Shown here piece after piece: positions 8,261-41,839 of a stretch of 64,000 nucleotides of DNA; the stretch's first letter is position 1, and every line of letters begins with the position of its first letter. Location: positions 1,612,001-1,676,000 of the forward strand of contig NZ_CP149940.1 of the NCBI RefSeq assembly GCF_037948395.1, in the 5' to 3' direction. Below the pieces are notes generated by a model. The model searched no databases. It was not told the DNA's origin and worked only from the letters and a program-made list of their open reading frames with translations. This stretch comes from Serratia nevei. Its GTDB lineage: Bacteria; Pseudomonadota; Gammaproteobacteria; Enterobacterales; Enterobacteriaceae. The translations under genes and the position numbers were made by a program.

Positions 8261-8300
8261 CAGCATTTTGGTAGCTTTAAGCCAAGGGCGGTAGCGTGCC
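8261..8300 (+). promoter_or_regulatory. JUMPstart sequence with ops element (RfaH recruitment) for the capsule operon
   Basis: The 40 bp from CAGCATTTTGG to AGCGTGCC match the enterobacterial JUMPstart consensus over nearly the whole length. They contain a perfect ops core GGCGGTAGCGTG at 8287-8298. In the known mechanism, RNA polymerase pauses at ops and RfaH loads onto it, suppressing downstream termination in long LPS and capsule operons. It lies 85 bp before the galU start, in a transcribed leader. Confidence 0.93.
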
Positions 8301-10455: not shown

Positions 10456-10512
10456 ATGGGCGCTCGACGTCAGTTTTATTCTACTGAGAAGAGAACTCTA
10501 AGTGGTAAATAA
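10456..10512 (+). CDS. Possible 18-codon leader peptide upstream of and overlapping wzx
   Basis: ATG at 10456 is preceded by a very strong AGGGAGGT ribosome site. It opens the short frame MGARRQFYSTEKRTLSGK, ending at TAA 10510-10512, inside the first codons of wzx (GTG at 10502). The downstream gene itself has only a weak GAGAAGAGA site and a GTG start. Translational coupling is therefore a reasonable inference. No similarity is recognised and the frame could be fortuitous, but the ribosome site is the best in the area. Confidence 0.35.
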   Translation: MGARRQFYSTEKRTLSGK

Positions 10513-12028
10513 AAAATTAATGGCGAAAAACACTTTCATGCTGTATGGCCGCATGTTGTTAATCATGTTTGCGACGCTATATACATCACGAATGGTTCTG
10601 GAAGCCTTGGGTGTTTACGATTTCGGCTTGTATAGCTTGGTCGGTAGCATAATCATACTGTTCTCGTTCATTCAGAATGTTTCGGCTTTGGCTACACAGC
10701 GTTTTTTATCTGTTGGCTTGGGGAAGATGGATTTTGCCTGGACGAATAAAGTATTTAACGTCAGTATAATTGTCCATTTAATCATATGTGCGTTGATAAT
10801 TTTCGTTGCAGAGACAGTTGGGCTTTGGTTTTTACTGCATAAGTTAAAAGTACCAGAAGCAAGGCTAGATGATATATTCTGGGTATATCAAATATCAATT
10901 CTTTCTTTGCTTTTTCAAATAATGCAAACGCCATTTATAGCATCAATGATCGCATGTGAAAAAATGGATTTATTCGCCAAAATCGGTATTTTCGATGCCT
11001 TCCAGCGATGGTTTATGGTGTTTATTTTCTCGATCTCGGCGGTTGAAAATAAGATTATCGGTTATGCGATATTCTTGCTAATAGGTTACTTTCTTGTCTT
11101 TTCGGTTTATCTTAAGTTTTGTACTTCGCGGTTAAGTATTTGTAAAATAAATCTTCGCCAGAAGGATAGTGCGAGTTTGCTGAAGGAAATTTTCTTCTTC
11201 TCTAGTTGGTCGATGCTGGGGTCACTAAGTGTGGTAGGGTTGTCACAGGGAATTGCGTTACTAACCTACTATTTTGTAGGCGTCGTAGCTAACGGCGCCG
11301 TCTGGCTAGCAGAACAAATATTGATTGCCTTTAATAGAATTATCGGTACTTTGCAGACAGCATTTAATCCTCAAATAATAAAGCAGTATACGATTGGTAA
11401 CCATCATGAAGTTGAGTCTCTATTATCGCTATCCTGCAAATTAACAGCGTTTGTTGTCATGGTTTCTGCAATACCGGTTTTTATTGATGCAAAAGCTATT
11501 GCCGAAATTTGGCTAAATACCCCTCCTGAGTATTTGGTCGGTCTTATAAAAATAGTTGCCATATATGTTCTGATAGATTCAATGTCGGGACCTTATGTGA
11601 CTGCGATTTATGCAGTTGGGAGACTTAGGAACTATCAAATTATAGTTTCTTCAATCATGCTACTCTCTCTCTTACTCACCCTAATTCTTTATTTTTCCGG
11701 CTACTCTATCTACATTGCAGTTTCTGCACGAATAGCTTGCACTTTATCTTTGTTGATTTTTAGAGTTATTTATGTGGGTAAAATTATAGGGATAAACGTC
11801 AATCGTTTTTTATGTTATGACTTCCCTCGCTTGGTATTTGTAGCTTTAGTTTGTATTCTTTTAAGTCATTATTGTAGTTATTATATGGTAGGTGGTTTCT
11901 TTGGGGTCTTTAGTTTAACGTTAGTTAACCTCTTTGCTGTCTTGATCATGTTTTCTCTGTTTATCGTGAGCAAAAAAGAGAGGGTGAACATTATCAATAT
12001 GATTAAAAATCGATTTAAACGGGTTTAA
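10502..12028 (+). CDS. wzx: Wzx-type polysaccharide repeat-unit flippase
   Basis: The 508-residue integral membrane protein has about 12-14 hydrophobic segments spread over the whole length and basic ends (..KKERVNIINMIKNRFKRV). Its N-terminal part, with MLYGRMLLIMFATLYTSRMVLEALG, is typical of the polysaccharide transporter / MATE-like flippase group. Wzx moves the undecaprenyl-linked repeat unit across the inner membrane. The GTG at 10502 and an in-frame ATG at 10520 are both possible starts. It is the first AT-rich gene after galF and matches a Wzx/Wzy-dependent system with the wzy at 22.2 kb. Flippases vary strongly between capsule types, so the assignment rests on topology and context. 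Confidence 0.88.
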   Translation: MVNKKLMAKNTFMLYGRMLLIMFATLYTSRMVLEALGVYDFGLYSLVGSIIILFSFIQNVSALATQRFLSVGLGKMDFAWTNKVFNVSIIVHLIICALIIFVAETVGLWFLLHKLKVPEARLDDIFWVYQISILSLLFQIMQTPFIASMIACEKMDLFAKIGIFDAFQRWFMVFIFSISAVENKIIGYAIFLLIGYFLVFSVYLKFCTSRLSICKINLRQKDSASLLKEIFFFSSWSMLGSLSVVGLSQGIALLTYYFVGVVANGAVWLAEQILIAFNRIIGTLQTAFNPQIIKQYTIGNHHEVESLLSLSCKLTAFVVMVSAIPVFIDAKAIAEIWLNTPPEYLVGLIKIVAIYVLIDSMSGPYVTAIYAVGRLRNYQIIVSSIMLLSLLLTLILYFSGYSIYIAVSARIACTLSLLIFRVIYVGKIIGINVNRFLCYDFPRLVFVALVCILLSHYCSYYMVGGFFGVFSLTLVNLFAVLIMFSLFIVSKKERVNIINMIKNRFKRV

Positions 12029-12045: not shown

Positions 12046-13029
12046 ATGAATAATGAGTATGGTGTGTTAACTTATGAAAGTGAAGTATATGTTAAGCGCA
12101 ATTGGATTAACCTTGGTGACTATGTCCAAAGTACAGCGGCTAAACAATTTTTCCCTCATGTAGATAATTTTATCCCTCGTGACCATATGAATTCATATGC
12201 AGGCAATAAAGCCAAAATGATTATGAATGCCTGGTACATGGATTTACCTGAAAATTTCCCTCCATCAGATAATGTCTGCCCGCTATATGTATCGATACAC
12301 ATTAACTCTACGGTTGCAGAAAAGATGTTGACTCCGGCAGCAGTCGAGCATTTCAAAAAATACTCGCCCATAGGTTGTCGCGATTTCTACACTCGTGATT
12401 TGTTGCAAAAAAAGGGGATTGATGCGTACTACTCAGGATGCATGACATTGACCTTAGGAGAGTCATACAAGCGAAATAAAGTTACTGATGATGTATACTT
12501 CATCGACGTAATGTATGACTCCAAAACGTTACCTGAGCTAATTCGTCAGCCTCTTCGATTCGGTAAACGAATTCTAAATGGGCGGGCATTTGAATTCACC
12601 CATCGTAAAAAAATACTAAATCAGTACTTCGATGCAGAATTATTAGAGCAAGCCAAGTTTGAAACACAAATTATACCGTATATTGATGCGAAGGTAGGGT
12701 TTAAGTTAGCCGATGATTTCCTGCGACGCTTGGCTAATGCAAGATTGGTAGTGACGTCGAGAATTCACACAGCATTACCGTGCTTGGCTATGGGAACTCC
12801 TGTTATCTTCGTTAATGGCGGCTTTAAGAATAAGGTCGACAATTGTCGATTTGATGGTCTGTTTGACTTCTTCAATAGAATTGATGTTGATGATAAAGCT
12901 GAGTCGACTACAAACTTTGAGTATTCTGGTGAAAAAATAGGGCTTAGAACTCTTATCAAAAACAAAGACATTCACCTTCAATATGCAAATGAATTGATAG
13001 CAAAATGCAAAGATTTTGCACAGAGCTAA
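12046..13029 (+). CDS. Polysaccharide pyruvyl transferase family protein
   Basis: The 327-residue soluble protein has the features of the polysaccharide pyruvyltransferase family (CsaB/GumL/WcaK type). Near the middle is IGCRDFYTRDLLQKKG, the conserved 'RD..T...L...G' segment, followed by YYSGCMTLTL. Near residue 235 is RLVVTSRIHTALPCLAMG, the conserved 'SRlHa..pala.G.P' donor-binding segment. Such enzymes add ketal pyruvate from phosphoenolpyruvate to a sugar of the repeat unit. The start has AAGG seven bases upstream and lies 17 bp after wzx. The context predicts an acidic, pyruvylated capsule; the acceptor sugar cannot be read from sequence. Confidence 0.85.
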   Translation: MNNEYGVLTYESEVYVKRNWINLGDYVQSTAAKQFFPHVDNFIPRDHMNSYAGNKAKMIMNAWYMDLPENFPPSDNVCPLYVSIHINSTVAEKMLTPAAVEHFKKYSPIGCRDFYTRDLLQKKGIDAYYSGCMTLTLGESYKRNKVTDDVYFIDVMYDSKTLPELIRQPLRFGKRILNGRAFEFTHRKKILNQYFDAELLEQAKFETQIIPYIDAKVGFKLADDFLRRLANARLVVTSRIHTALPCLAMGTPVIFVNGGFKNKVDNCRFDGLFDFFNRIDVDDKAESTTNFEYSGEKIGLRTLIKNKDIHLQYANELIAKCKDFAQS

Positions 13030-13325
13030 TTTTTTGATGCTACACCGTAGCATGCCATTCAACTGAATGCCTCGAAAATAAATTCTCGTCATTATATGGA
13101 TATGGTCATGGCAACTTTTGTTTTATTTATAAAGCATCAGTGCAAGTGTTCACCATATTCTCGTTGGATGATTTTTCTTGGTCGCTATAGACATAGACGT
13201 TTTGTAATATATAAATAAGGACTGCTTTGAGTTTTAGCTAATACAACAAAGTAGTCATTATTTTTTTATGAATACTGCCTATAAATAAAAACCAAATCGT
13301 AGTATAGGTACGGGTAGACCTGCGT
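13030..13325. other. Gene-free spacer between pyruvyltransferase and glycosyltransferase
   Basis: There is no supported gene in this AT-rich ~300 bp. A small perfect hairpin, ATGCTAC/GTAGCAT (13037-13053), lies just after the preceding stop codon but has no T run. A 40-codon frame at 13097-13219 has no ribosome site and is not called. Confidence 0.4.
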
Positions 13326-14417
13326 ATGAATGATATGATAGACAGTGATATTAAACTCTTTTCTTCAGCGCTTGACGATTGTCCAATATGTTTCATTTTC
13401 CCCTCCAAAATAGTGGGAGGACATGAGATTATGGCGATAGAACTTATCAAGTTACTGAGACAGCAAAAAGAATTTAAAGAAAGAAATTTTCTGGCGTATG
13501 TTCCTATTGATAATCTAAAAATAAAAAAAACACTGTTTGAAAATGGAATTGCGTACGAATCATTTAAAGCCAATTTATTCAAACCCGAGTTCCTACATGC
13601 TCTCTTTAACCCTGTATACATATCACGCTGTATCAGGTTGCTACGATCAACCCCAAAGGGAAGTAAAATAATTGTTGTTCAGGGTGATATTCTCCAGGGA
13701 CTGGGTTACTTTGTCGCAGGGAGATTGCTTGATAAAACTGTGACTAGCTATATACCATATGCTCATTCTTTCAAGAGAATGGCGGCAAAAGCTGCATGGC
13801 TAAAAGATAGTTTTTCAACCTTAGCTTATAGGCTATGTAATAATTATATAACGATATCGAAAGTTTTTGAAAAAGAACTAATAAATAGAAATAGAAAAGC
13901 AAAAGTCCTTATTGTTCATAATTTCGTTGAAAAAACCTCAGCATCTTTCACTGTGCGAGAATTTTGTGTCACTGATGTCGTTAATATTTTCATCATTGGC
14001 CGTGTGCAATTTCATCAAAAAGGGCATGATGTATTAGTGGAAGCCCTTTCAGGGATTGGCGAATATCAAATTGCATTGCATGTAGTTGGTGACGGTCCAG
14101 ATCTAAAAAATTTAAAAAACATGCAGGGAAAATTACCAGACAACATATCGATGGTTTTTCATGGCTGGGCAACCAACTCTTGGGATGTGGCAGAAAAGAA
14201 CAAGATTGATTTTCTGGTAATACCATCGCTGTTCGAAGGCGTACCGCTTGTCATGTTGGAAGCTTTGGAAAGAAATGTGCCAATCATTGCTGCTGCTAGG
14301 GATGGTATGTTAGATTACTTACCTACGGACAGCCTATATGATGTCAGTGGTGATTCTGTGATGGCTCTTCGGAGTAAAATAATCGCTCACATTCGCCAGC
14401 GAACGCCAAAAATTTAA
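13326..14417 (+). CDS. Glycosyltransferase family 4 (GT-B) of the capsule cluster
   Basis: The 363-residue predicted GT-B enzyme has a Rossmann-like N-terminal half with SKIVGGHEIMAIEL. Its C-terminal donor-binding half carries VNIFIIGRVQFHQKGHDVLVEAL (the usual 'GR....KG...li.A' element), HVVGDGPDLKNL, and IPSLFEGVPLVMLEAL, the GT4 E-x7-E-like motif. It should transfer one sugar to the lipid-linked repeat unit at the cytosolic face. The donor is unknown; GDP-mannose (manCB) and UDP-galactose (galE) are made by genes in this window. The ATG at 13326 has only a weak ribosome site; ATG 13335 is an alternative. It ends 29 bp before wza and is strongly AT-rich. Confidence 0.85.
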   Translation: MNDMIDSDIKLFSSALDDCPICFIFPSKIVGGHEIMAIELIKLLRQQKEFKERNFLAYVPIDNLKIKKTLFENGIAYESFKANLFKPEFLHALFNPVYISRCIRLLRSTPKGSKIIVVQGDILQGLGYFVAGRLLDKTVTSYIPYAHSFKRMAAKAAWLKDSFSTLAYRLCNNYITISKVFEKELINRNRKAKVLIVHNFVEKTSASFTVREFCVTDVVNIFIIGRVQFHQKGHDVLVEALSGIGEYQIALHVVGDGPDLKNLKNMQGKLPDNISMVFHGWATNSWDVAEKNKIDFLVIPSLFEGVPLVMLEALERNVPIIAAARDGMLDYLPTDSLYDVSGDSVMALRSKIIAHIRQRTPKI

Positions 14418-14446: not shown

Positions 14447-15583
14447 ATGATAAATCCAAAAGTTAAAGCTTTAGCAATCATTGTATATGGAGCTATGCTA
14501 ACGGGGTGTGCAATTGCACCCGGTCAGCACCTAACAACTGATAGCAAAAATGTTGTTAAACAAGAAGATAGTGACTTTCAGATTGATGAACTAGTTAACA
14601 TTTACCCTTTGACTCCCTCGCTTATCGCCAAACTTAGACCGGTAAAAGTGGTTGCTCAGCCTAACGTATTATTAGAGCAAGCAACGAAGAATTATGAGTA
14701 CAGAATTGGTGTTGGTGATGTTTTAAACATCACAGTGTGGGATCATCCAGAACTAACTACGCCTGCAGGCCAGTATCGTAGTGCGAGTGATACCGGTAAC
14801 TGGGTACAATCCGATGGGACTATCTTCTACCCTTACATAGGAAAGGTTAAAGTTTCAGGGAAAACAGCCAGCCAGGTAAGAAGTGAAATCTCTAGTCGTC
14901 TGACCCAATACATTGAAAGCCCCCAAGTGGATGTGAATATAGCTGCCTTTAGATCTCAGAAAGCTTATATTACTGGTGAGGTTGAGAAGTCAGGTCAACA
15001 GCCAATTACCAATATTCCATTGACAGTATTGGATGCCATTAATGCGGCAGGCGGACTCAGTGCTAATGCCGACTGGCGAAATGTAGTTTTGACACACAAT
15101 GGTAAAGAGCAAATACTATCACTTCAAAAGTTGATGCAAAATGGTGATTTAACGCAAAATCAGTTGCTCTATCCAGGTGACATCATTTATGTACCACGTA
15201 ACGATGATTTGAAAGTTTTTGTTATGGGTGAAGTCAAATCCCCGGCGACATTAAAAATGGATCGCAGTGGTATGACCTTAACAGAAGCATTAGGCAATTC
15301 TGCTGGCTTGGATCAAAACACTGCTGATGCAACAGGTGTGTTTGTTATTCGACCTCTGCGTGGAACGCAAGGGAAAAAGATTGCGGATATATATCAACTT
15401 AATATGGCTGATGCTACCGCTATGGTAATGGGTACTGAATTCCATTTACAGCCTTATGATGTTGTTTATGTTACAGCTGCACCTGTCGTTCGTTGGAACC
15501 GTGTCATAGTACAGCTTGCTCCTACAATCTCTAGCTTTAATAATTTAACTGAAGCTAGCTTGCGTATCCGAAACTGGCCGTAG
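14447..15583 (+). CDS. wza: Wza outer-membrane polysaccharide export lipoprotein
   Basis: The 378-residue protein (E. coli Wza is 379) has a lipoprotein signal with lipobox LTGC (Cys21). The polysaccharide export (PES) domain follows at residues ~80-170, with [20 protein letters not shown]. Two SLBB-type domains follow (..[31 protein letters not shown].. and ..[22 protein letters not shown]..), and there is a C-terminal helix with ..[14 protein letters not shown]. Wza forms the octameric outer-membrane channel for group 1 capsule and works with Wzc. wzb follows after 10 bp, and wza-wzb-wzc form one tight unit. In many group 1 clusters wza directly follows galF; here wzx and two other genes intervene. 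Confidence 0.96.
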
Positions 15584-15593
15584 GAATTGAGAC

Positions 15594-16025
15594 ATGTTTG
15601 ATTCAATTTTAATTGTTTGTGTCGGAAACATATGTCGTTCACCTATCGGTGAACGTTTACTAAAGGAGTTGCTTCCTCACAAAGATATTAGCTCTGCAGG
15701 CATTTCAGCCTTAGTTGGCAACTCTGCTGATGCTAAAGCCATCAATGTTGCTAATGCACATGGGTTAAGTCTGAATGGGCATGTTGCACGCCAACTAACC
15801 ACCGAAATGTGTAGGAAAAGCTCACTTATTCTTGTTATGGAACGTAAGCATATTGACGCTGTGTGCCAATTCTCACCGGAAGCACGTGGAAAAACGATGC
15901 TTTATGGCCATTGGAACGATAGAAAAGAAGTCGTCGACCCCTATCGTAAGAGCGACGAAGTCTTTGAGTTTGTCTATAAGCTGTTAGCTGAGTCAGCGCA
16001 GAAATGGGTTAAAGCACTAAATTGA
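15594..16025 (+). CDS. wzb: Wzb low-molecular-weight protein tyrosine phosphatase
   Basis: The 143-residue cytosolic phosphatase has the P-loop CVGNICRS (Cys9, Arg15) at the N terminus and the general-acid motif DPYRKS near residue 115, both complete. It dephosphorylates the tyrosine cluster of Wzc, and cycling of Wzc phosphorylation is needed for capsule polymer export. It lies between wza (10-bp gap) and wzc (9-bp gap), the standard group 1 arrangement. Confidence 0.96.
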   Translation: MFDSILIVCVGNICRSPIGERLLKELLPHKDISSAGISALVGNSADAKAINVANAHGLSLNGHVARQLTTEMCRKSSLILVMERKHIDAVCQFSPEARGKTMLYGHWNDRKEVVDPYRKSDEVFEFVYKLLAESAQKWVKALN

Positions 16026-16034
16026 TGAATAGAG

Positions 16035-18194
16035 ATGACAATGACTGAAAATAAAAGAGCTGGCACTACTGGCAATGGTCAGGATGACATCGATCTCGGC
16101 AGATTATTTGGAATACTGATTGATCATCGTTGGTTGATTATTGGTATAACCCTTTTATTCTCTGTAGTGAGCATGGTATATGTCATATTCGCAACTCCCG
16201 TCTATCAATCAGATGCTTTAATTCAGGTTGAAAATAAGGCAGGGAATGCGATACTTAGCGATCTGTCACAAATGATCTCTAATAATGATTCCAGTACTTC
16301 ATCGACCGAAATAGAATTGATCCAATCTAGGATGGTAGTAGGAAAAACTGTCGATGATCTTGGTCTCGATACTATCGTTTCTGTCAAAAGATTCCCTATT
16401 CTTGGTCGCGCCTGGGAGCAGCTAATCTCAGAGAAAGAACCCAAAATTGCACTCTCACGCCTTAATGTGCGTGAAGATCTGATTGGTTCTCAGATGGAAC
16501 TTAAGATTGTCGATAAAAATAATTATATTCTGTCAGCTGATGATACGGAAATTCTTAAAGGGCAAGTAGGCACACTAGCAACATCGGATTATGCTAGTTT
16601 ACTTGTAACAGATATAGATGCGGCTCCCGAAACGATTTTTTTTGTTGAAAAAGTACACAAGATTAATGCGATAAATACAGTTTTAAAAGCTTTGACTGTT
16701 GTGGATAAGGGAAAGGATACCGGTGTTCTTAATCTCAGTTATTTGAGTACTGATCCCGTGCAAGGCAAAAAAGTGCTTCAAAGCATTAGTAATAATTATT
16801 TATTGCAAAATGTCGAAAGAAAGTCGGAAGAGGCCGCAAAAAGTCTGGCTTTCTTAAAAGAGCAATTACCAATCGTACGAGAGTCACTAGATACGGCTGA
16901 AAACAAGCTGAATCTTTTCAGGCAACAAAACTCTTCTGTCGACCTCTCTCTTGAAGCTAAATCCATGCTGGATACTATCGTATCCACAGAGTCGCAGCTC
17001 AACGAGTTAACTTTCAAAGAGGCCGAGATATCCAAGCTTTACACTAAAGAGCACCCTGCTTATCGAGCATTGTTAGAAAAGCGTAAAACATTGGAGACAG
17101 AGCGAGGTAACTTAAATAAGAAAATTAATGGAATGCCGAAGACTCAGCAAGAGATAATTCGGTTAACACGTGATGTTGATGCAGGTAAAGAAATTTACAT
17201 GCAGTTATTAAATAAACAGCAAGAATTAAGCATCACCAAAGCGAGTACAGTTGGCAATGTCCGTGTGGTTGATCCTGCAATCACTCAGATCAAACCTGTA
17301 CAACCACGTACGTTGTTAATTATTATCATTGCAACAATTTTAGGCTTGCTGATATCCGTAAGTATTGTTTTGCTAAAAACAATGTTGCATAAGGGCATCG
17401 AAAGCCCAGAGCAGCTTGAACAGGAAGGAATAAACGTATACGCGAGCATCCCGTTTTCTGAGTGGCAACAAAAGAAAGATAGAGAGACGTTTGTTCACTA
17501 TAAAAAACGTCATCAACCAGGCAAAGGTAATCTTCTTTCTACAGAAAACCCTGCAGATCTAGCAATTGAAGCTATTCGAAGTCTTCGTACTAGTTTGCAC
17601 TTTGCAATGCTTGAGGCAAAAAACAATGTTTTAATGATATCTGGTGCTAGTCCTAATATTGGTAAAACTTTTGTTAGCATTAACTTAGCTGCTGTTATTG
17701 CTCAAACAGGGCAAAGGGTTCTTATTATAGATGCCGATATGCGAAAAGGTTATTCGCATAGTTTGCTGGGTTTCGAAGGGACAAATGGCTTATCAGATAT
17801 TTTAGCTGGGAAAATAGGAATAGAGAGCTCGATAAAGAAAACTGATATAGAAGGAATGGACTTCATTTCTCGTGGCCAGGTTCCACCTAACCCTGCTGAA
17901 CTATTGATGACCTCGCGCTTTGGAGACCTTGTTGATTGGGCTACTAAAAATTACGATCTCGTGCTTATCGATACACCTCCGATTCTAGCTGTTACTGATG
18001 CAGCTATTATAGGTCATCATGTTGGAACATCTTTAATGGTTGCCAGATTTGCGATGAATACCGTTAAAGAGATCGAAGTAAGTATGAGGCGTTTTGAGCA
18101 AAATGGCATTGAAGTTAAAGGTATTATTTTGAATGCTGTTGAGCGACGGGCTACTAACTATTATGATTATTATCAATATGAGTATAAAAGCTAG
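16035..18194 (+). CDS. wzc: Wzc tyrosine autokinase / polysaccharide co-polymerase
   Basis: The 719-residue inner-membrane protein starts with a Wzz-type chain-length domain flanked by membrane segments at ~38-58 and ~430-450, with a periplasmic coiled-coil region between. The cytosolic BY-kinase follows: Walker A SGASPNIGKT (~536-545), Walker A' LIIDADMRKG (~563) and Walker B LVLIDTPP (~642). The C-terminal tail NYYDYYQYEYKS holds six tyrosines as autophosphorylation sites. It controls polymer length and gates export with Wza; Wzb reverses the phosphorylation. The ATG at 16041 has a better-placed AGAGA ribosome site and may be the true start, giving MTENK as in E. coli. Confidence 0.96.
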   Translation: MTMTENKRAGTTGNGQDDIDLGRLFGILIDHRWLIIGITLLFSVVSMVYVIFATPVYQSDALIQVENKAGNAILSDLSQMISNNDSSTSSTEIELIQSRMVVGKTVDDLGLDTIVSVKRFPILGRAWEQLISEKEPKIALSRLNVREDLIGSQMELKIVDKNNYILSADDTEILKGQVGTLATSDYASLLVTDIDAAPETIFFVEKVHKINAINTVLKALTVVDKGKDTGVLNLSYLSTDPVQGKKVLQSISNNYLLQNVERKSEEAAKSLAFLKEQLPIVRESLDTAENKLNLFRQQNSSVDLSLEAKSMLDTIVSTESQLNELTFKEAEISKLYTKEHPAYRALLEKRKTLETERGNLNKKINGMPKTQQEIIRLTRDVDAGKEIYMQLLNKQQELSITKASTVGNVRVVDPAITQIKPVQPRTLLIIIIATILGLLISVSIVLLKTMLHKGIESPEQLEQEGINVYASIPFSEWQQKKDRETFVHYKKRHQPGKGNLLSTENPADLAIEAIRSLRTSLHFAMLEAKNNVLMISGASPNIGKTFVSINLAAVIAQTGQRVLIIDADMRKGYSHSLLGFEGTNGLSDILAGKIGIESSIKKTDIEGMDFISRGQVPPNPAELLMTSRFGDLVDWATKNYDLVLIDTPPILAVTDAAIIGHHVGTSLMVARFAMNTVKEIEVSMRRFEQNGIEVKGIILNAVERRATNYYDYYQYEYKS

Positions 18195-18294: not shown

Positions 18295-19359
18295 ATGATA
18301 TATGTCAACGCGAGATTTTTAACGCAAAATCTGACTGGAGTACAGCGATTTGCAGAGCAAATTAGTCTTGAATTTAAGAAAATCAGAAACGATGTTGTAT
18401 TCCTAGCACCTCCAGATATTTTGAGAGACGAGATAGCATCTAAGCTTAATGTAGTTAAAATCGGAGAAAGAGGAGGGCACTTTTGGGAGCAGATAACCCT
18501 TCCTAATTACCTTAAGAATAATGGAGGAGGGCTCCTGATCAATCTTGGTAATACTGGCCCAGTTTTTTATAGAAATCAGATCGTAACACACCACGACGTT
18601 ACGTATAAAAAATTCCCTCAAAGTTATTCATGGAAGTTTCGCTCTATTTATAACACCTTTATTCCTTTGATGCTAAAGAATAGTCGTGCATTAATAACGG
18701 TTAGTGAGTTTTCTAAGGATGAAATTGAGAGTGTTTACAACTATGGCAGAAATAGAATAAATGTCATCTATAATGCTTCGAGTGATGTTTTCAAAAAAAA
18801 ATTAAAAAATTCTAACTCCCAGGTTCCGAATAAATATTTTTTGGCCGTTTCTTCTCCTAGTTTTCATAAGAATTTTCATGGTTTAATAAAGGCTTTTTCA
18901 AAGGCAGAAAACTTTGATGGTTACTCTTTAAAAATAATTGGTGAGAAGAGCAAAAATCTTGGCGGCATAGATTTGGATGATTTGATCAGGAATTGTAAAA
19001 ATAAAATTGAATTTCTTGGTCGGGTTTCAGATGAAGAACTCGTTGAACTTTATTCAAACGCATATTCATTCATATTTCCCTCTTTATATGAGGGATTCGG
19101 TATTCCTCCTTTGGAAGCGCAAGCATGCGATTGCCCCATTCTGTCATCTAACGCAGCTTCAATGCCAGAAGTCTTGTCGGATAGTGCAATCTTCTTCAAT
19201 CCTGAAGATGAATATGAAATTATTAATGCAATGTATATGATAAGAGATAACCCAACGCTTCGTGTTCAGTTAATTGAAAAAGGTCGCGAAAATATTAAAA
19301 GATTTTCTTGGGTTAATTCGGCACAACAATTGAATACTCTTGTTGACAGCTTAAATTAG
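18295..19359 (+). CDS. Glycosyltransferase family 4, mannosyltransferase-like
   Basis: The 354-residue GT-B enzyme has an N terminus MIYVNARFLTQNLTGVQRFA, with the 'TGVqR' element typical of GT4 enzymes in O-antigen and capsule loci. It also contains TVSEFSKDEI, the donor-site SSPSFHKNFHGLIKAF and IFPSLYEGFGIPPLEAQACDCPIL, with the E-x7-E pair complete. It should add one sugar to the capsule repeat unit. Mannose is a reasonable guess because manC and manB are in this window, but specificity cannot be read. The gene is AT-rich and sits 100 bp after wzc, beyond a hairpin terminator. Confidence 0.88.
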   Translation: MIYVNARFLTQNLTGVQRFAEQISLEFKKIRNDVVFLAPPDILRDEIASKLNVVKIGERGGHFWEQITLPNYLKNNGGGLLINLGNTGPVFYRNQIVTHHDVTYKKFPQSYSWKFRSIYNTFIPLMLKNSRALITVSEFSKDEIESVYNYGRNRINVIYNASSDVFKKKLKNSNSQVPNKYFLAVSSPSFHKNFHGLIKAFSKAENFDGYSLKIIGEKSKNLGGIDLDDLIRNCKNKIEFLGRVSDEELVELYSNAYSFIFPSLYEGFGIPPLEAQACDCPILSSNAASMPEVLSDSAIFFNPEDEYEIINAMYMIRDNPTLRVQLIEKGRENIKRFSWVNSAQQLNTLVDSLN

Positions 19360-19424
19360 AAACTGATTCGTTTAATGTTGCATCAGTTCATCTTAGCATA
19401 AATATTATGACTCAAGGGATTTCT

Positions 19425-20582
19425 ATGTTTCAAGAGAAAATCAACGTCGGAATTGTTGCTGATTGGCTAGTTACGTACGCCGGTGCAGAGAAGGTTATTA
19501 AAGAGTTTTTTGAAATTTATCCAGAAGCTGACTTGTATTCTGTTGTTGACTTCTTATCTGATGAGTCACGTATTAATTTCAAAGGCAAGAAAGCCAAAAC
19601 TACATTTATACAAACTTTGCCAAGGGCGAAGAGAGCATACCAAAAATACCTTCCATTAATGCCTCTTGCCATAGAACAACTAGATGTTTCTAATCACAAT
19701 GTTATTCTGTCTAGTTCACATGCTGTATCAAAAGGGGTACTCACCGGACCTGACCAATTGCATATTTGTTATGTTCATTCACCAATTCGCTATGCATGGG
19801 ACTTACAGCACCAGTATTTAAAAGAGTCTGGTTTAGACCGCGGGTTGAAGGGAATGCTTGCAAAATGGTTGCTACATAAAATTAGGATTTGGGACTGCAG
19901 AACCACTAATGGCGTTGACCATTTTGTGGCAAACTCTCAATTTATTGCTCGCAGAATAAAAAAAGTATACGGACGTGATGCAGATGTCATTTATCCGCCT
20001 GTGGATGTCGAGCGTTTCAACTTCTGCTCAGAGAAAGAAGATTATTATGTCACTGCATCACGCCTCGTACCTTATAAAAGAGTCGATCTTATTGTTGATG
20101 CATTCAGTGCCATGCCAGATAAAAAGTTGGTTGTGATTGGTGATGGTAGTGAGATGAAAAAAATAAAGTCGAAAGCAGCCGGAAATGTTGAAATTCTAGG
20201 TTATCAAACCAATGATGTAATGCAAAAATATATGGAAAGGGCTCGTGCATTTATTTTTGCAGCGGAAGAGGATTTCGGAATTACTCCAGTAGAAGCTCAG
20301 GCTTGTGGCACTCCTGTGATTGCTTACGGAAAAGGTGGGTCTCTCGAAACGGTAAGGCCGTTTGGAGTTATGCACCCAACGGGTATTCTGTTTGATCAGC
20401 AAACGCCTCAATCTGTGATAGCTGCTGTCCAGCATTTTGAAAAAATAAAAGATAGCTTTGTTGCTGAAGATTGTCGAAATCATGCGATGAAATTTTCAAG
20501 TGAACGTTTCCAGAAGGAAATGGGTGAATATATATCATCCAAATGGGAACAGTTTGAAGAAAGCAAGAAAATAGTATACTAA
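19425..20582 (+). CDS. wbaZ: Glycosyltransferase family 4, WbaZ-like mannosyltransferase
   Basis: The protein has 385 residues from the ATG at 19425, which has AAGGGA five bases upstream; a longer frame from ATG 19407 lacks a site. The sequence is highly reminiscent of WbaZ from Klebsiella capsule loci: VADWLVTYAGAEKVIKEF, HAVSKGVLTGPDQLHICYVHSPIRYAWDLQHQYL, and the donor-binding FAAEEDFGITPVEAQACGTPVIAYGKGG. WbaZ-type enzymes are assigned as GDP-mannose-dependent transferases acting on lipid-linked intermediates at the cytosolic membrane face. That fits manC and manB in the window. The symbol is given by resemblance; the exact linkage is unknown. Confidence 0.85.
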   Translation: MFQEKINVGIVADWLVTYAGAEKVIKEFFEIYPEADLYSVVDFLSDESRINFKGKKAKTTFIQTLPRAKRAYQKYLPLMPLAIEQLDVSNHNVILSSSHAVSKGVLTGPDQLHICYVHSPIRYAWDLQHQYLKESGLDRGLKGMLAKWLLHKIRIWDCRTTNGVDHFVANSQFIARRIKKVYGRDADVIYPPVDVERFNFCSEKEDYYVTASRLVPYKRVDLIVDAFSAMPDKKLVVIGDGSEMKKIKSKAAGNVEILGYQTNDVMQKYMERARAFIFAAEEDFGITPVEAQACGTPVIAYGKGGSLETVRPFGVMHPTGILFDQQTPQSVIAAVQHFEKIKDSFVAEDCRNHAMKFSSERFQKEMGEYISSKWEQFEESKKIVY

Positions 20583-20657: not shown

Positions 20658-20715
20658 AAGGCGATTAAAGCCATTCAGGAATGGGTAAAACTGATGAAAA
20701 GAAATAATGTTTTTT

Positions 20716-20724
20716 GGGGGGGGG
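20716..20724 (+). repeat. Homopolymeric G9 tract (after T6) within the 5' end of wbaP
   Basis: Nine consecutive G, immediately preceded by six T, fall in codons 8-11 of wbaP (Trp-Gly-Gly-Ala). Gain or loss of one G would frameshift the gene a few codons after the start. I noticed no comparable G or C run inside another capsule gene of the window. Confidence 0.9.
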
Positions 20725-21206
20725 CTTTCCCAAAAGTATTTCTTGCTGCGGCTGATTTGTTGTTTTTTAATTTAGCAATTGTTTTTGCTTATTTTATTAT
20801 GTGTTTTTTGTTTGATAACGTATCTGTTTTTATTCCTGCGAATGAAATGAATATGAGGTTTTTATCTCATTTCTTCCTTTCTGTCATTTGCATAGGATGG
20901 TTTTGGACTCGACTTAGACACTATTCTTACCGGAAGCCTTTTTGGTTTGAATTGAAAGAAATTATAAGAACATTAATAATTTTCGCGGTTCTAGATCTGG
21001 CATTAGTTGCATTCTCAAAATGGAACTTTTCTCGGTTACTATGGTTGGTTACCTGGACGCTGATCCTTGTCGCCGTTCCGCTAGGTCGTAGCTTAGCCAA
21101 GCACATTCTGAATAAACTTAATTTGTGGAAAAAAAACACTATCATCATTGGGTCTGGTCGTAACGCATTTGAGGCATATGCTGCTCTACAAAGTGAAGAA
21201 GTGTTA

Positions 21207-21209
21207 TGA
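21207..21209 (+). other. In-frame TGA stop (codon 172) inside wbaP
   Basis: The codon series reads GTG TTA TGA TTC AAC. Frames on both sides are in phase (20694 and 21228 differ by 534, a multiple of three), so this is a nonsense codon and not a frameshift. It could be a real mutation, a sequencing error, or a read-through site. Confidence 0.9.
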
Positions 21210-22140
21210 TTCAACGTTTCCGCGTTTGTGTGCACAGATTCACCATGTGAAAGAGAATATAATGGTATTCCTGTAATTAATAGTGAAAAGGAATTATGGG
21301 AAATTGCAGACATAGAAAATACTCAATTCATTGTGGCTCTCGAATTTGAGCAACATAGCTTGCGTGATTGGTGGCTAAAAAATCTAGCAAAACACAATTG
21401 TCGTTCAGTATCTGTCATTCCTACTTTACGAGGAGTACCTCTTTACGGTACTGACATGTCATTTATTTTTAGTCATGAAGTGATGATTCTTAGGGTCAGC
21501 AATAATTTAGCAAAACGCTCATCGCGTTTTCTTAAACGTATCTTTGATATTTTCGGTTCATTTGCAATAATGCTCGTTTTGTCGCCAGTGCTGCTATTCT
21601 TAGCTTATACGGTATCACGTGATGGTGGAAAGCCAATCTATGGTCATGAAAGAATTGGCCGTGACGGAAGAAAATTTAAGTGTTTAAAGTTTCGTTCAAT
21701 GGTTGTAAATTCGCAAGAAGTCTTGGCTGAATTACTTGCTAATGATCCGTTGGCGCGTGAAGAATGGAATAAAGATTTTAAACTAAAAAATGACCCGCGT
21801 ATTACTAAGATAGGTTCTTTCATACGTAAAACCAGTCTTGATGAACTTCCACAACTTTGGAATGTTTTTATTGGCGAAATGAGTTTGGTTGGACCGCGCC
21901 CCATAGTTGAGGCAGAGCTTGAGCGCTATGCAGGCGATGTTGATTACTATTTAATGGCGAAACCTGGCATGACGGGGCTATGGCAAGTTAGTGGTCGTAA
22001 TGATATTGATTATGATACCCGAGTCTATTTTGATGCATGGTACGTCAAGAATTGGGCACTATGGAACGATATCGCCATACTTTTTAAAACTATTAATGTC
22101 GTGCTTAAAAAAGATGGCGCTTATTAAGTGATTTAAGTTT

Positions 22141-22218: not shown

Positions 22219-23388
22219 ATGATGACAATAGTGTCAGAGAATGTACTTCTTGAGAACAGTAAGTGTAGTGAGTCTTTTTATCTAAAAACCTTACGGTGGT
22301 TAATAGCACTATTTATAATTGCAAGCCCTTTAAGTCCCTTTGTTGCTAATACGACGATTTATTTGTGGATTCCGCTAGTGTTTTTTGATTATCAATATAT
22401 AAGATCTTTCAGGGCGGTCTCAAAGGCTGTCTTGCTCTGTGTCTTTATTTGGTTAAGCATGTGTTTTTTATTCTTTAGATATGATTTGGCGCTTAAGTCT
22501 TTTGTTCTTATCTTGGGGGTATCTTATCTAGTCAAAGTAGGAACACCTATTACCAATAAAGTTTATTGCTGCATGTTAGTATCGATAGTATGGTGCGTAA
22601 TACAATTCATTGCATATCAGATTAATCCCTCTTATTCTGCTGCGATTGGTCCTGGCTCCATATCGAAGTTTTTCTGGGGCGAGTTTGCAACGATGACTTT
22701 TACCAATCAATACACGCTTTTCCTGTTTCCTCGCATGTCAGGTTTATCACGAGAGGCGGGTTTTTTTGCTTCTCTGCTAATTATTTCTTTCATGATACGT
22801 ACTAGAGATAATAAACTCAATTTTATCGAGAAATCACTTTTTCTTCTTGGTTATCTTTTCAGTCTCTCGAAGTCTTCGATTACACTAGTTCTCTTCTTTA
22901 TTCTTTACCCGATGAGAAAATTATTGAGAAAGGTCCCCGTTATTGTCACCTTTATCGGGTTTATTGTCATTTTCGTGTCACTGGCACAATTTTTAAATAT
23001 TGGGGCGCCGAGCTACTTTATGGTTAATGACTCCATAGCTCACCGCTTATCAGCATCATATCTTATGCTCCATATGAACATTGGCAATCTTCTCTATGGC
23101 TGCAACACAGAGTACAATTGCATTGTAGACTACCAGCCCCTGGTCGGTTACCTTACTGATCAAGGTCTAATTCCTGCTGTTGGATTGTCCGGGTTAATTA
23201 TGGATATGGGGTTACTTGGATTTGTTGGGGTGATATTTGCTTTTTTGATACTTAAACTGGATAGTTATGATGTTGCGATTGTGGCTATATTTACAGCAAC
23301 AGTTTCTTTCTTTACGGTTGACAGCTTCATAATACTTACTTACTTTTATATTATAACTAATCATAAAGAAAAAAGTAGTTTCGTATAG
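22219..23388 (+). CDS. wzy: Wzy-type capsule repeat-unit polymerase
   Basis: The 389-residue integral membrane protein has about 10-11 hydrophobic segments and one larger hydrophilic loop (residues ~270-320, ..LLYGCNTEYNCIVDYQPLVGYLTDQG..), the usual topology of Wzy polymerases. A second conserved-looking stretch, RMSGLSREAGFFASLL, resembles the 'R..G...ep...' motif of O-antigen polymerases/ligases. It would join repeat units at the periplasmic face, working with Wzx and Wzc. The start has AAAGGAAAT directly upstream. It is the last capsule gene before the slaA region and extremely AT-rich. Wzy sequences are type-specific, so the call rests on topology and on the need for a polymerase in this locus. 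Confidence 0.85.
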   Translation: MMTIVSENVLLENSKCSESFYLKTLRWLIALFIIASPLSPFVANTTIYLWIPLVFFDYQYIRSFRAVSKAVLLCVFIWLSMCFLFFRYDLALKSFVLILGVSYLVKVGTPITNKVYCCMLVSIVWCVIQFIAYQINPSYSAAIGPGSISKFFWGEFATMTFTNQYTLFLFPRMSGLSREAGFFASLLIISFMIRTRDNKLNFIEKSLFLLGYLFSLSKSSITLVLFFILYPMRKLLRKVPVIVTFIGFIVIFVSLAQFLNIGAPSYFMVNDSIAHRLSASYLMLHMNIGNLLYGCNTEYNCIVDYQPLVGYLTDQGLIPAVGLSGLIMDMGLLGFVGVIFAFLILKLDSYDVAIVAIFTATVSFFTVDSFIILTYFYIITNHKEKSSFV

Positions 23389-24405: not shown

Positions 24406-24473
24406 TAAACTGCTACTCGTGGTTGTCTTTTTTTGTTTTTTGTCGTCCATCATATTGAATGATTGGGGGTTTT

Positions 24474-27479: not shown

Positions 27480-27532
27480 GGGTAAAACCACAACAGCCAA
27501 TAATTCCCTATGGAACTATTGAGTTTTAAATA

Positions 27533-27566
27533 ATGCGGGGGGGTTATTCCCCCGCATGTTTAAATT
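27533..27566 (+). terminator. Terminator after slaA
   Basis: A 9-bp stem ATGCGGGGG/CCCCCGCAT (27533-27541 with 27549-27557) is followed by GTTTAAATTT. It separates the highly expressed slaA from lipBCD. Confidence 0.7.
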
Positions 27567-29626: not shown

Positions 29627-29680
29627 GCCGTGAACTGGCCTGGCGGCGCCGTTGCGTCGCCGGCAGTCAAAGGAGTTGGT

Positions 29681-31012: not shown

Positions 31013-31014
31013 TT

Positions 31015-32667: not shown

Positions 32668-34092
32668 ATGTCCAAACTAATTCCTGTGGTTATGGCCGGC
32701 GGTACTGGGAGTCGTCTATGGCCGATGTCGCGAGAATCGTTTCCTAAACAGTTTTTGTCTATTGATGAGAGTGGCGTAAGTCTGCTGCAACAGACGTTAC
32801 AGCGTTTGTCGGGCCTGGCTGGCATTGAAGTTGCCGCCCCTCTGGTCATCTGCAACGAGGAACATCGTTTTTTAGTTGCCGAACAATTACGTGAAATTGG
32901 ACAATTAGCGACCAATATTATTTTAGAGCCCGTAGGGCGTAATACCGCCCCAGCAGTGGCGTTAGCCGCTCATCTTGCTGCTGAGGAAGACGAAGAGAGT
33001 ATGCTTTTGGTGCTGGCAGCGGACCATCTGATCACCAAAGTGGATAATTTTCACGCGGCTATTCAGACGGCTATTTCGTTTGCAGAAAACAACCAACTGG
33101 TCACGTTTGGCATTATCCCTGAGCACCCTGAAACGGGCTATGGCTATATTAAGCGTGGCGAGCACCTTTCCAATGCATGTTTCAAAGTTGATTCGTTCGT
33201 TGAGAAGCCGCGTTTGGAGAAAGCGGTCGAATACCTCGCCAGCGGTGATTACAGCTGGAATAGCGGTATGTTTATGTTCAAGACGGCCAAGTTCCTGCAG
33301 GAACTGCGGCAATTCAGTCCTGAAATTTTCAGCACTACCCAGCAGTCTGTGAGCAACAGCCAACGCGACATGAATTTTATCCGGGTTGAGCAAGACATCT
33401 TCAAACACTGCCCGAGTGACTCCATTGACTATGCGGTGATGGAAAAGACGCATGACGCGGTGGTGATTCCTATTGATGCGGGCTGGAGTGACGTCGGTTC
33501 CTGGTCCTCATTGTGGGAAGTGTCAAAGAAGGATCATTTGGGTAATGTCAACGTGGGTGAAATTATCTCGATCGATTCCAATGACAACTACATTTCCTCT
33601 GAGTCCGCGTTGGTGGCGACCATCGGGTTGGAAAACCTGGTTGTGGTCAACACCAGTGATGCTCTACTGATTGCTCATAAAGACAAAGTGCAGGATGTCA
33701 AAAAAGTCGTCGATGAGCTTAAAAAGCGAAACCTTCATCATTTCCGCCAGCATTCAGCCTCTTATCGCCCCTGGGGCAAAATTTGCGACATCGACAGCGG
33801 CCCGCACTTCCAGGTGAAAAAGATCATTGTGCGGCCTGGTGAAGGCTTGTCAGTACAACGTCATCTCCATCGGGCTGAACATTGGGTGGTCGTGAGCGGT
33901 ACGGCAAAAGTTAACGTTGATGATAAGGAGTTCTTCTTATCTGAAAATCAGTCCACCTTTATTCCTGCGGGCAGTGTCCATACGTTGGAAAACCCCGGCA
34001 AAATCGATTTGGAAATGATTGAGGTCAGGTCGGGGCACTATCTGGAAGAAGATGATATTGAGCGTTTGCAAGATCGCTATGGCAGAGTTTAA
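32668..34092 (+). CDS. manC: Mannose-1-phosphate guanylyltransferase ManC (CpsB)
   Basis: The 474-residue protein makes GDP-mannose from GTP and mannose-1-phosphate. The N-terminal nucleotidyltransferase has the loop MAGGTGSRLWPMSRESFPKQ and the signature VEKPRLEKA. The C-terminal ~120 residues form the type II phosphomannose isomerase cupin domain starting RPWGKICDIDSG. The usual QMHHHRAEHW is QRHLHRAEHW here, which keeps the HxH and Glu of the cupin motif. manB follows after 12 bp. GDP-mannose can feed the WbaZ-like capsule transferase. Composition is intermediate between the capsule genes and the backbone. It is preceded by ~220 bp without a gene after the lipD terminator. Confidence 0.95.
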   Translation: MSKLIPVVMAGGTGSRLWPMSRESFPKQFLSIDESGVSLLQQTLQRLSGLAGIEVAAPLVICNEEHRFLVAEQLREIGQLATNIILEPVGRNTAPAVALAAHLAAEEDEESMLLVLAADHLITKVDNFHAAIQTAISFAENNQLVTFGIIPEHPETGYGYIKRGEHLSNACFKVDSFVEKPRLEKAVEYLASGDYSWNSGMFMFKTAKFLQELRQFSPEIFSTTQQSVSNSQRDMNFIRVEQDIFKHCPSDSIDYAVMEKTHDAVVIPIDAGWSDVGSWSSLWEVSKKDHLGNVNVGEIISIDSNDNYISSESALVATIGLENLVVVNTSDALLIAHKDKVQDVKKVVDELKKRNLHHFRQHSASYRPWGKICDIDSGPHFQVKKIIVRPGEGLSVQRHLHRAEHWVVVSGTAKVNVDDKEFFLSENQSTFIPAGSVHTLENPGKIDLEMIEVRSGHYLEEDDIERLQDRYGRV

Positions 34093-34104
34093 TAGGGTTT
34101 GGTA

Positions 34105-35478
34105 ATGCAAAAATTGACGTGTTTTAAAGCTTATGACATTCGGGGAAAGCTGGGCGAAGAGCTGAATGAGGACATCGCGTATCGTATTGGACGCGCTTAC
34201 GGCGAGTTTTTGAAACCCAAGTCTATCGTATTGGGCAGCGATGTACGCTTGACCAGTGAAAGCCTGAAGCAGGCGCTGGCGAAAGGCTTACAGGATGCGG
34301 GGTCCGACGTTATCGACATCGGCTTAACCGGGACCGAAGAAATCTATTTTGCCACGACCTATTTAAAAACTGATGGTGGCGTGGAAGTCACCGCCAGCCA
34401 TAACCCTATCGATTACAACGGCATGAAGTTGGTGCGTGAAGGCTCTCGCCCGATTAGCGGCGATACAGGATTACGAGCGATCCAGGAGCTGGCGGAGAAA
34501 AATCAGTTTCAGGCACCGGCAGCAACGCGCGGCAGCTACGTACGTCAGGACGTGTTAGGGGCTTATGTAAAGCACATTCTGTCCTATGTCGATGTGAACA
34601 ACTTCAAACCGTTGAAGCTGGTGATCAACTCGGGCAATGGCGCGGCAGGGCATGTTATCGATGCCATTGAGGCGCAACTGAAGGCGCAGGGCGTACCATT
34701 GGAGTTTATCAAGGTGCATCACCAGCCGGACGGCACTTTCCCTAACGGTATTCCCAACCCATTGCTTCCTGAGTGTCGTGCGGATACCGCCGATGCGGTG
34801 CGTGAGCATGGCGCTGATATGGGCATTGCGTTCGACGGCGATTTCGATCGCTGCTTCCTGTTCGATGAAAAAGGCGATTTCATTGAGGGTTATTATATCG
34901 TCGGCTTGCTGGCGGAGGCCTTCTTGCAGAAACAGCCGGGCGCGAAGATCATCCACGATCCACGTCTGAGCTGGAACACCGTCGATGTGGTCACCGATGC
35001 TGGGGGCGTGCCTGTGATGTCAAAAACCGGCCATGCTTTCATTAAGGAGCGTATGCGTACGGAAGACGCCATTTATGGCGGAGAGATGAGCGCCCACCAC
35101 TATTTCCGTGATTTTGCTTATTGTGACAGCGGCATGATCCCGTGGCTGCTGGTCGCTGAGTTGGTCAGTGTGAAAGGGAAAACCTTGGGACAGCTGGTAC
35201 AGGATCGCATTGCTGCCTATCCGTCTTCCGGTGAGATCAATATCAAGCTGGCCCAGCCGGCCGTGTCTATTGAAAGCGTTAAGCAACACTATTTGGCGCA
35301 AGCCGACGAGGTGGACTACACCGATGGCATCAGTATGGCGTTTGCAGGCTGGCGTTTCAATCTGCGTTCCTCCAATACGGAACCGGTAGTGCGTCTTAAT
35401 GTCGAATCACGTGCTGATGTTGCGCTGATGCAAGAGAAAACTGATGAAATTCTTGCGCTGCTCGCTGCAAAAATTTAA
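34105..35478 (+). CDS. manB: Phosphomannomutase ManB (CpsG)
   Basis: The 457-residue enzyme of the alpha-D-phosphohexomutase family interconverts mannose-6-phosphate and mannose-1-phosphate. It begins [23 protein letters not shown] like E. coli CpsG. The phosphoserine loop is [13 protein letters not shown], the metal loop FDGDFDRCF, the sugar loop [10 protein letters not shown], and the phosphate-binding [14 protein letters not shown]. All four are complete. The ATG at 34105 is used; an in-frame TTG at 34099 is less likely. It is cotranscribed with manC and ends before a hairpin terminator. Confidence 0.95.
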
Positions 35479-35504
35479 TGCTTAGTACATTGAAGATCTA
35501 GGAT

Positions 35505-35530
35505 GAGGGCGGCTTTTTGCCGCTCTTTCT
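35505..35530 (+). terminator. Intrinsic terminator after manB
   Basis: GAGGGCGGC pairs with GCCGCTCTT across a T5 loop, with two G-U pairs, followed by TCTTTCTTC. It lies 26 bp downstream of the manB stop. Confidence 0.65.
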
Positions 35531-35623
35531 TCATGGTGCGCTCAGAAGGTTGTATGATGCATCCATTATTAAATGGGGTGCTTTTGTCAAACAAAGGGTG
35601 TTACCGAAGTATAAGGGGTTGAT

Positions 35624-36637
35624 ATGGCAATTCTAGTCACCGGCGGTGCCGGTTACATCGGGTCTCACACCGTTTTATCTCTGTTGGAACGTGGCGAAGA
35701 CGTGGTGGTATTGGACAATTTGTCTAACTCATCTGCGGAGTCATTGCAGCGGGTGGAGAAACTGGCGGGGAAAGCCGCCGTGTTCTACCAGGGAGATGTT
35801 CAGGATGCCGAATGCCTGCATCGCATCTTTGAAGCGCACTCGATTACGAGCGTGATCCATTTCGCCGGTCTTAAGGCGGTGGGGGAATCTACGCGTAAAC
35901 CGCTGGAATACTACCAGAATAACGTTACTGGCACGCTGGTGTTGTTGGATGCGATGCGCCGTGCCGGCGTACATGCGTTCATTTTTAGCTCGTCCGCCAC
36001 CGTCTATGGGGCCAATTCGCCGGTGCCTTACGTCGAGACGACGCCGATCGGCGGCACGACCAGCCCTTATGGTACGTCCAAGCTGATGGTGGAACAGATT
36101 CTGCAGGATTTCGCCAAGGCTGAGCCGCAGTTTTCGATTATTGCCTTGCGTTACTTTAACCCGGTAGGTGCCCATGAGTCGGGGTTGATCGGCGAAGATC
36201 CTAACGGAATTCCCAATAACCTGTTGCCTTATATCTCGCAGGTTGCTATTGGCAAACTGGAAAAGCTGGGTATTTTCGGCGGGGATTACCCGACGAACGA
36301 TGGGACGGGAGAGCGTGATTACATTCATGTCATGGATCTAGCCGAAGGCCATCTGAAAGCGATGGATCATCTGCCGAAGCTCAACGGATTTAAGGCCTAT
36401 AACCTGGGGGCCGGTGTAGGGCACTCGGTGCTGGCGATGGTTCAGGCATTTGAAAAAGCCTCCGGTGTCGCGATCCCTTACCAAATATTGCCACGCCGCG
36501 ACGGCGATCTGCCTGCCTTCTGGGCGAATGCCGATCTGGCTTATCAGGAGCTGGGGTGGAAAGTGCGCAGGGGACTCGATGACATGATGCGCGATACTTG
36601 GAACTGGCAGAAGAAAAATCCTAGGGGTTACCATTAA
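35624..36637 (+). CDS. galE: UDP-glucose 4-epimerase GalE
   Basis: The 337-residue extended short-chain dehydrogenase (E. coli GalE has 338) has the NAD loop [11 protein letters not shown] (residues ~6-16), a catalytic SSSATVYG with Ser, and YGTSK with Tyr and Lys. It also has the substrate-binding [18 protein letters not shown], all typical of GalE. It interconverts UDP-glucose and UDP-galactose; the latter is the WbaP donor for capsule initiation. It has its own spacing from manB (145 bp with a terminator), so it is probably a separate transcript. A terminator-like structured region follows immediately. Confidence 0.95.
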
Positions 36638-36663
36638 ACCACACTGATTAAAAATATTGATTG

Positions 36664-36760
36664 CGGGTGGTCTGGGAGGTGCTCCGACAGTCACAGGGCT
36701 ATCGGAGCCCAATAAACATGAAGACCACCGATCAGCGAGGGTTGTTACCTCGCTTTTTTA
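36664..36760 (+). ncRNA. Candidate small structured RNA downstream of galE
   Basis: Nested perfect helices are visible: an outer GGTGGTCT/AGACCACC (from ~36666 to ~36729) encloses GCTCCGA/TCGGAGC. This is followed by a separate terminator hairpin AGCGAGG/CCTCGCT (36734-36754) and T6. A weak promoter could be TTACCA (36628-36633) with AAATAT (36652-36657), putting a start near 36664. The two-stem-plus-terminator layout is typical of bacterial small RNAs, but it could simply be the galE 3' untranslated end. No known family is recognised. Confidence 0.35.
36734..36760 (+). terminator. Rho-independent terminator downstream of galE
   Basis: A 7-bp GC-rich stem AGCGAGG/CCTCGCT with loop GTTGTTA is followed by six T. 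It ends the galE transcript and/or the candidate small RNA. Confidence 0.85.
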
Positions 36761-41817: not shown

Positions 41818-41839
41818 AACTTCCTCAAAATATTAAAAT

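What the first reader, a model, noticed from the sequence alone, without database searches (positions are those of the whole stretch)
21207..21209. wbaP, the capsule-initiating transferase, is split by an in-frame TGA
The sequence shows one 477-codon frame broken only by TGA at codon 172, in place of what looks like GGA (Gly). The upstream part keeps the membrane segments. The downstream part keeps the complete catalytic sugar-phosphate transferase domain, which for WbaP-type enzymes is known to work without the N-terminal half. Possible readings are: an acapsular lineage, a reversible mutant, a split enzyme restarted from GTG 21228, or low-level UGA read-through that sets capsule level.
Basis: partly seen in the sequence, partly recalled or inferred. 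Interest (0 to 1): 0.75.

Follow-up and report, generated by a model that had tools for sequence, protein, structure and literature searches.

The report
Capsule-starting enzyme gene, broken by stop
In this Serratia genome the one gene found for starting assembly of a sugar capsule is cut in two by an early stop signal that the compared relatives lack, so the strain has probably lost that capsule: an ordinary kind of mutation rather than a new mechanism.

Summary
In detail: a 477-codon wbaP frame (20694-22127) is interrupted by one in-frame TGA at 21207-21209, codon 172. The two pieces, searched apart, match the start and end of WbaP models and of solved WbaP chains. In the collections searched, the stop is seen in this genome only: the frame is open across the site in 80 of 80 named relatives and in the 18 of 29 other genomes of the genus that have a close homologue. 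It is the only PF02397 match in the genome. The downstream piece shows no excess of unusual residues, which suggests a young stop. The sequence after the TGA folds poorly, the one tRNA-Trp found is ordinary, and the proposed GTG restart has no Shine-Dalgarno pairing; a later ATG has weak pairing. The cut falls inside a domain. Best reading: a recent loss-of-function nonsense mutation, giving a capsule/EPS-negative strain. Raw reads and other strains with this capsule type could not be examined, and all eight literature calls failed. A run of nine G near the gene's 5' end is a further, unproven, source of instability.

The parts
20694..21209 (+). wbaP, upstream piece (171 aa): hydrophobic segments and the first part of a CoA-binding-like domain, ended by TGA
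21207..21209 (+). in-frame TGA, codon 172
21210..22127 (+). rest of the wbaP frame after the stop; first in-frame start GTG 21228; complete PF02397 domain
21456..21458 (+). in-frame ATG (codon 255), the best of the six restart sites scored for anti-SD pairing (-3.0 kcal/mol, against -5.8 for the true start)
20716..20724 (+). run of nine G in codons 8-11 of wbaP; not in the 17 relatives compared
8261..8298 (+). JUMPstart element at the head of the polysaccharide locus
   Evidence: RF01707, 56 bits
8367..10236 (+). two tandem GalU/GalF-like genes (8367-9284, 9286-10236)
10502..12028 (+). 508-aa protein with 11 hydrophobic segments, position and shape of a Wzx flippase (no Pfam or NCBIfam match)
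12046..14417 (+). pyruvyl transferase and a group 1 glycosyltransferase
14447..18194 (+). wza, wzb, wzc
18295..20582 (+). two group 1 glycosyltransferases
22219..23388 (+). 389-aa protein with 9 hydrophobic segments, position and shape of a Wzy polymerase (no Pfam or NCBIfam match)
32668..38729 (+). manC, manB, galE, rmlC, rmlD sugar-nucleotide genes

Best explanation
A recent single-codon nonsense mutation has inactivated wbaP, which encodes the enzyme that puts the first sugar phosphate (by family, galactose-1-phosphate) on undecaprenyl phosphate. With no other PF02397 protein found in the genome, the Wzx/Wzy-type polysaccharide of this locus is no longer started, and the cell is capsule/EPS-negative or nearly so; surface sugars that start through PF00953 enzymes should be unaffected. 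Shown: the stop, the gene's identity, its being the only PF02397 match, the absence of the stop in the relatives compared, and near full-length matches for seven other genes of the window. Inferred: loss of activity, the phenotype, its selection (in a host, by phages or in culture) and its ability to revert.
For: Stop in frame with both WbaP pieces. Frame open across the site in 80 of 80 named relatives and in the 18 of 29 other genomes of the genus with a close homologue; of the other 11, 7 have only a 38-43% homologue, also in an open frame, and 4 have none. One PF02397 match in the genome, against three PF00953 matches. The downstream piece has 3 lineage-unique residues of 299, fewer than each of 5 Serratia relatives (4, 4, 6, 17, 18); the upstream piece has 8 of 163 (others 5, 7, 8, 8, 11). 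Models for Wza, Wzc, ManB, GalE, RmlC, AsmA and DcuC are matched over nearly their whole length, so these seven are not broken. The stop is not in or beside a homopolymer.
Against: The complete catalytic domain and its undecayed sequence would also fit a working downstream product. ATG 21456 has anti-SD pairing (-3.0 kcal/mol) close to that of wza (-3.3). No phenotype, reads or other strain with this capsule type were available; the nearest wbaP allele found in the genus is 76% identical in DNA.
Confidence: 0.8

Rival explanations
1. Sequencing or assembly error: the strain's gene is whole.
For: The stop was seen in this genome only and the rest of the gene shows no decay.
Against: The pieces are in one frame, so it would be a substitution, outside homopolymers, in a 2-contig assembly rated 100% complete; seven other genes in the window match their models at near full length. 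The G9 tract, in my view the likeliest error site in the gene, is in frame.
Confidence: 0.08
2. Split enzyme: the ribosome restarts downstream of the stop and the catalytic half works alone, giving reduced capsule.
For: The PF02397 domain is complete in the downstream piece, and that piece alone passes the TIGR03022 cut-off (434.3 against 403 bits). In-frame starts exist, among them GTG 21228 and ATG 21456; the latter would give 223 aa with the whole PF02397 stretch and has pairing (-3.0 kcal/mol) close to that of wza (-3.3). From memory, WbaP C-terminal fragments keep transferase activity.
Against: No anti-SD pairing at GTG 21228 (+1.2 kcal/mol) and less at ATG 21456 than at the true start (-5.8); but 3 of the 12 other gene starts compared also lack pairing, so this is weak. 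The stop cuts inside the CoA-binding-like domain (profile position 99 of 175, a match below that family's cut-off). The ATGA overlap at 21206 opens only a 14-codon frame. None of 80 relatives is split there.
Confidence: 0.07
3. UGA read-through (near-cognate tRNA-Trp or selenocysteine) makes a little full-length WbaP.
For: UGA is the leakiest stop (recalled). The genome has tRNA-Sec and one formate dehydrogenase gene with an in-frame TGA.
Against: The 50 nt from the wbaP TGA fold poorly (-5.1 kcal/mol; 198 of 200 shuffles at least as good; 287 of 300), against -14.6 for the genome's formate dehydrogenase site (47 of 300 shuffles at least as good, so that control is itself not extreme). The one tRNA-Trp match has anticodon CCA and G at position 24, so it lacks the suppressor change that I recall there. 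The next base is T, which I recall as favouring termination. None of 80 relatives has the stop.
Confidence: 0.04

Closest known systems
WbaP (undecaprenyl-phosphate galactose phosphotransferase; NF011751, TIGR03022; solved chains 8t53, 9s7s, 9s8l, 30us, 30wc)
   Same: Both pieces align in order with the enzyme; PF02397 domain complete.
   Different: Frame interrupted at codon 172.
Inactivating mutants of capsule-initiating transferases (wcaJ, wbaP) in Klebsiella and other enterobacteria (recalled, not looked up)
   Same: Loss of the first enzyme of a Wzx/Wzy pathway, leaving the rest of the locus in place.
   Different: Another genus and allele; phenotype not known here.
L071, wbaP homologue of Erwinia sp. 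OLFS4
   Same: A premature in-frame stop in a wbaP homologue.
   Different: The stop lies elsewhere, inside the stretch that matches the downstream piece.
Single-domain phosphoglycosyl transferases such as PglC (8g1n, 8e37; the name PglC is recalled)
   Same: The downstream piece contains the same core, which is why a working half is thinkable.
   Different: No clear start signal of its own here, and part of another domain left attached.

Membership tests
WbaP (TIGR03022 / NF011751) | Bac_transf (PF02397) catalytic domain, complete | tested here: met
   1-179 of 179, 218.2 bits against 27
WbaP (TIGR03022 / NF011751) | Match to the subfamily model TIGR03022 above its cut-off | tested here: met
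   downstream piece alone 434.3 bits against 403
WbaP (TIGR03022 / NF011751) | Equivalog cut-off of NF011751 (907 bits) | tested here: inconclusive
   pieces 232.8 and 498.1 bits, searched apart; the whole was not scored, on purpose
WbaP (TIGR03022 / NF011751) | One uninterrupted frame of about 476 codons | tested here: not met
   TGA at codon 172; so this is an interrupted wbaP, not a working family member on present evidence
WbaP (TIGR03022 / NF011751) | Galactose-1-phosphate transfer to undecaprenyl phosphate | not testable with these tools
   needs an enzyme assay
Selenoprotein read-through of UGA | Stable hairpin directly after the UGA | tested here: not met
   -5.1 kcal/mol, weaker than most shuffles; the genome's own formate dehydrogenase site gives -14.6
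Selenoprotein read-through of UGA | tRNA-Sec in the genome | tested here: met
Evolved split gene | Break at a domain boundary | tested here: not met
   the upstream piece stops at profile position 99 of 175 of CoA_binding_3 (22 bits, below the cut-off of 25)
Evolved split gene | Start signal for the second piece | tested here: inconclusive
   none at GTG 21228, weak at ATG 21456; 3 of 12 other gene starts lack pairing too
Evolved split gene | Break shared by relatives | tested here: not met
   0 of 80; same-capsule strains were not available

The most novel reading that the evidence does not exclude
The break is a tuning device: a little catalytic-domain WbaP is made by restart (GTG 21228 or ATG 21456) or by leaky UGA, and the G9 run in the same gene adds a second, slippage-based switch, so this allele sets a low, variable capsule level.
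Probability: 0.04. Interest if true: 0.6.

Novelty: new member of a known kind. Interest (0 to 1): 0.18.

Why it matters
It predicts that this genome's strain is capsule/EPS-negative although its locus looks complete in gene content, which matters for capsule typing from sequence. If the catalytic half did work alone in vivo, it would test in nature whether the N-terminal half of WbaP is needed.

Tried and rejected
Rejected: two independent genes (both pieces fit one model in order); frameshift (the pieces are in one frame); an insertion (the same two pieces lie in one frame at like spacing in the relatives); the ATGA overlap at 21206 as a coupled restart (14-codon frame only); selenocysteine; the recalled tRNA-Trp suppressor change; a second initiating transferase of the PF02397 type. 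dN/dS could be computed for only one piece against the window (L005, upstream, 0.12), because synonymous differences are saturated (pS 0.71-0.94); of 22 pieces from 11 Serratia loci three were dropped as gapped (L015 upstream, L017 and L018 downstream). Lineage-unique residues were counted instead, on 5 of the 11 loci. Promoter and terminator scans gave about what the shuffles gave (14 against a mean of 13.2, 3 against 3.0).

Led nowhere: protein database searches with each piece (database switched off); a plasmid search to name the source (many enterobacterial matches, the best listed covering 42% of the query); eight literature calls, all failed, so no paper was seen and everything said of earlier work is recalled. 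Nothing is claimed about absence from print.

Full report
What is there. The window lies in a genome of 5.46 Mb in two contigs. A core gene in the window (asmA, 206-2038) is 96% identical in DNA to its copy in one other genome of the genus and 92% or less to the other 28 of 29. By equal contig coordinates that genome is the record named Serratia marcescens strain 106R, so the source is a Serratia close to S. marcescens (inference). The finding sits in a Wzx/Wzy-type capsule or exopolysaccharide locus: a JUMPstart element, GalU/GalF-like genes, a Wzx-like membrane protein, a pyruvyl transferase, glycosyltransferases, wza-wzb-wzc, wbaP, a Wzy-like membrane protein, a DUF4214 protein with a type I secretion-like set, and manC, manB, galE, rmlC, rmlD. 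'Wzx' and 'Wzy' rest on position and hydrophobic segments only; neither had a family match.

The break. The frame from ATG 20694 to the stop at 22125-22127 has 477 codons and one in-frame TGA, codon 172, at 21207-21209. The upstream piece matches positions 12-171 and the downstream piece (from GTG 21228) positions 184-476 of the 476-position WbaP model NF011751; in the solved chain 8t53 they align to residues 64-222 and 236-528. The upstream piece has three strongly hydrophobic segments by a simple hydropathy scan and the first part of the CoA_binding_3 domain, below that family's cut-off (22 against 25 bits; profile 12-99 of 175). The downstream piece holds all of PF02397, including the Asp-Glu pair at codons 383-384 that I recall as catalytic.

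Relatives. One scan of named bacterial genomes kept 80 loci, the best of 284. In 80 of 80 the two pieces are in one frame, open across the site; 79 of 80 have no stop between the start of the upstream match and the end of the downstream match, and one, L071 (Erwinia sp. OLFS4), has a stop further on, in the stretch that matches the downstream piece. In the genus 30 genomes were searched, this one included: 18 of 29 others have a close homologue (77-88% identity) in an open frame of 479-542 codons, 7 only a 38-43% homologue, also in an open frame, and 4 none. Some genomes are in both sets. These sets aim at one genome per species, so I saw no other strain known to have this capsule type; the nearest allele in the genus is 76% identical in DNA over codons 69 to the end.

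Age. Synonymous differences are saturated, so dN/dS is not usable for nearly all pairs. Counting residues found in one only of six Serratia sequences where at least four of the six share another residue, the window has 3 of 299 in the downstream piece (others 4, 4, 6, 17, 18) and 8 of 163 in the upstream piece (others 5, 7, 8, 8, 11). There is no sign of decay after the stop. This fits a young stop; it would also fit a downstream product still in use.

Ways round the stop. The genome has no other PF02397 match. It has three PF00953 matches, the family of WecA and MraY (recalled), which start other surface polymers; the neighbouring minus-strand cluster has an ABC transporter with a Wzt C-terminal domain, so an O-antigen made there probably does not need WbaP (inference). 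Restart: GTG 21228 has no anti-SD pairing (+1.2 kcal/mol); of six in-frame starts scored, ATG 21456 has the best (-3.0), against -5.8 for the true start and -3.3 for wza; 3 of the 12 other gene starts compared lack pairing, so this is weak evidence either way. Read-through: poor fold after the TGA, one tRNA-Trp match with the E. coli gene as query, ordinary in anticodon and position 24, tRNA-Sec present beside a formate dehydrogenase gene with an in-frame TGA elsewhere in the genome.

A second weak point in the gene. Codons 8-11 hold a run of nine G (20716-20724). It is one of five runs of nine or more G (either strand) on the chromosome contig. In the 17 of 80 relatives that I compared, the longest G run in the first 120 bases is 2 to 5. 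The run is in frame in this sequence. Such a run arises in 17 of 100 shuffles of the window, so by itself it is not remarkable. It may be a slippage hot spot; nothing here shows that it switches.

Verdict. The most likely meaning is the plainest of its readings: a recent loss of the capsule-starting enzyme. Loss of the first enzyme of such a pathway is a common route to capsule loss in enterobacteria (recalled), so the finding is ordinary in kind. The remaining doubt is about sequencing error, which needs the reads, and about a working catalytic half, which needs the isolate.

Noticed in passing
20716-20724: Run of nine G in codons 8-11 of wbaP, not in the 17 relatives compared; one of five such runs on the chromosome contig; it also falls in a terminator-like hairpin match. 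A candidate slippage site.
   Followed up: partly
L071:1616-1618: The wbaP homologue of Erwinia sp. OLFS4 has its own in-frame stop, at another place.
   Followed up: partly
20694-22127: The allele looks mosaic: the upstream piece is nearest to the L006 (S. grimesii) allele (73%) and the downstream piece to L002 (S. plymuthica, 88%) among the 80 loci, although the core gene asmA is nearest to a S. marcescens genome.
   Followed up: partly
24459-32391: A 1006-aa DUF4214 protein followed by ABC transporter, HlyD and outer-membrane efflux genes (a type I secretion-like set) sits inside the polysaccharide locus, between the wzy-like gene and manC.
   Followed up: no
7350-7880: What looks like a remnant of an insertion sequence (IS1222 frameshift element 7514-7639, minus strand; only short ORFs around it) lies upstream of the JUMPstart element.
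   Followed up: no
8367-10236: Two adjacent GalU/GalF-like genes: the first passes the TIGR01099 GalU cut-off, the second passes none of the cut-offs listed, and neither passes a GalF cut-off.
   Followed up: no
L151:8348-8356: Another run of nine (C on the coding strand) lies near the 5' end of a 549-aa ORF that I did not identify; a further run lies near the end of an ORF that by eye has YD-type repeats.
   Followed up: no
38818-47830: Minus-strand cluster with glycosyltransferases, UDP-GlcNAc 2-epimerase and a Wzm/Wzt-like ABC transporter, probably an O-antigen locus, next to the capsule locus.
   Followed up: no
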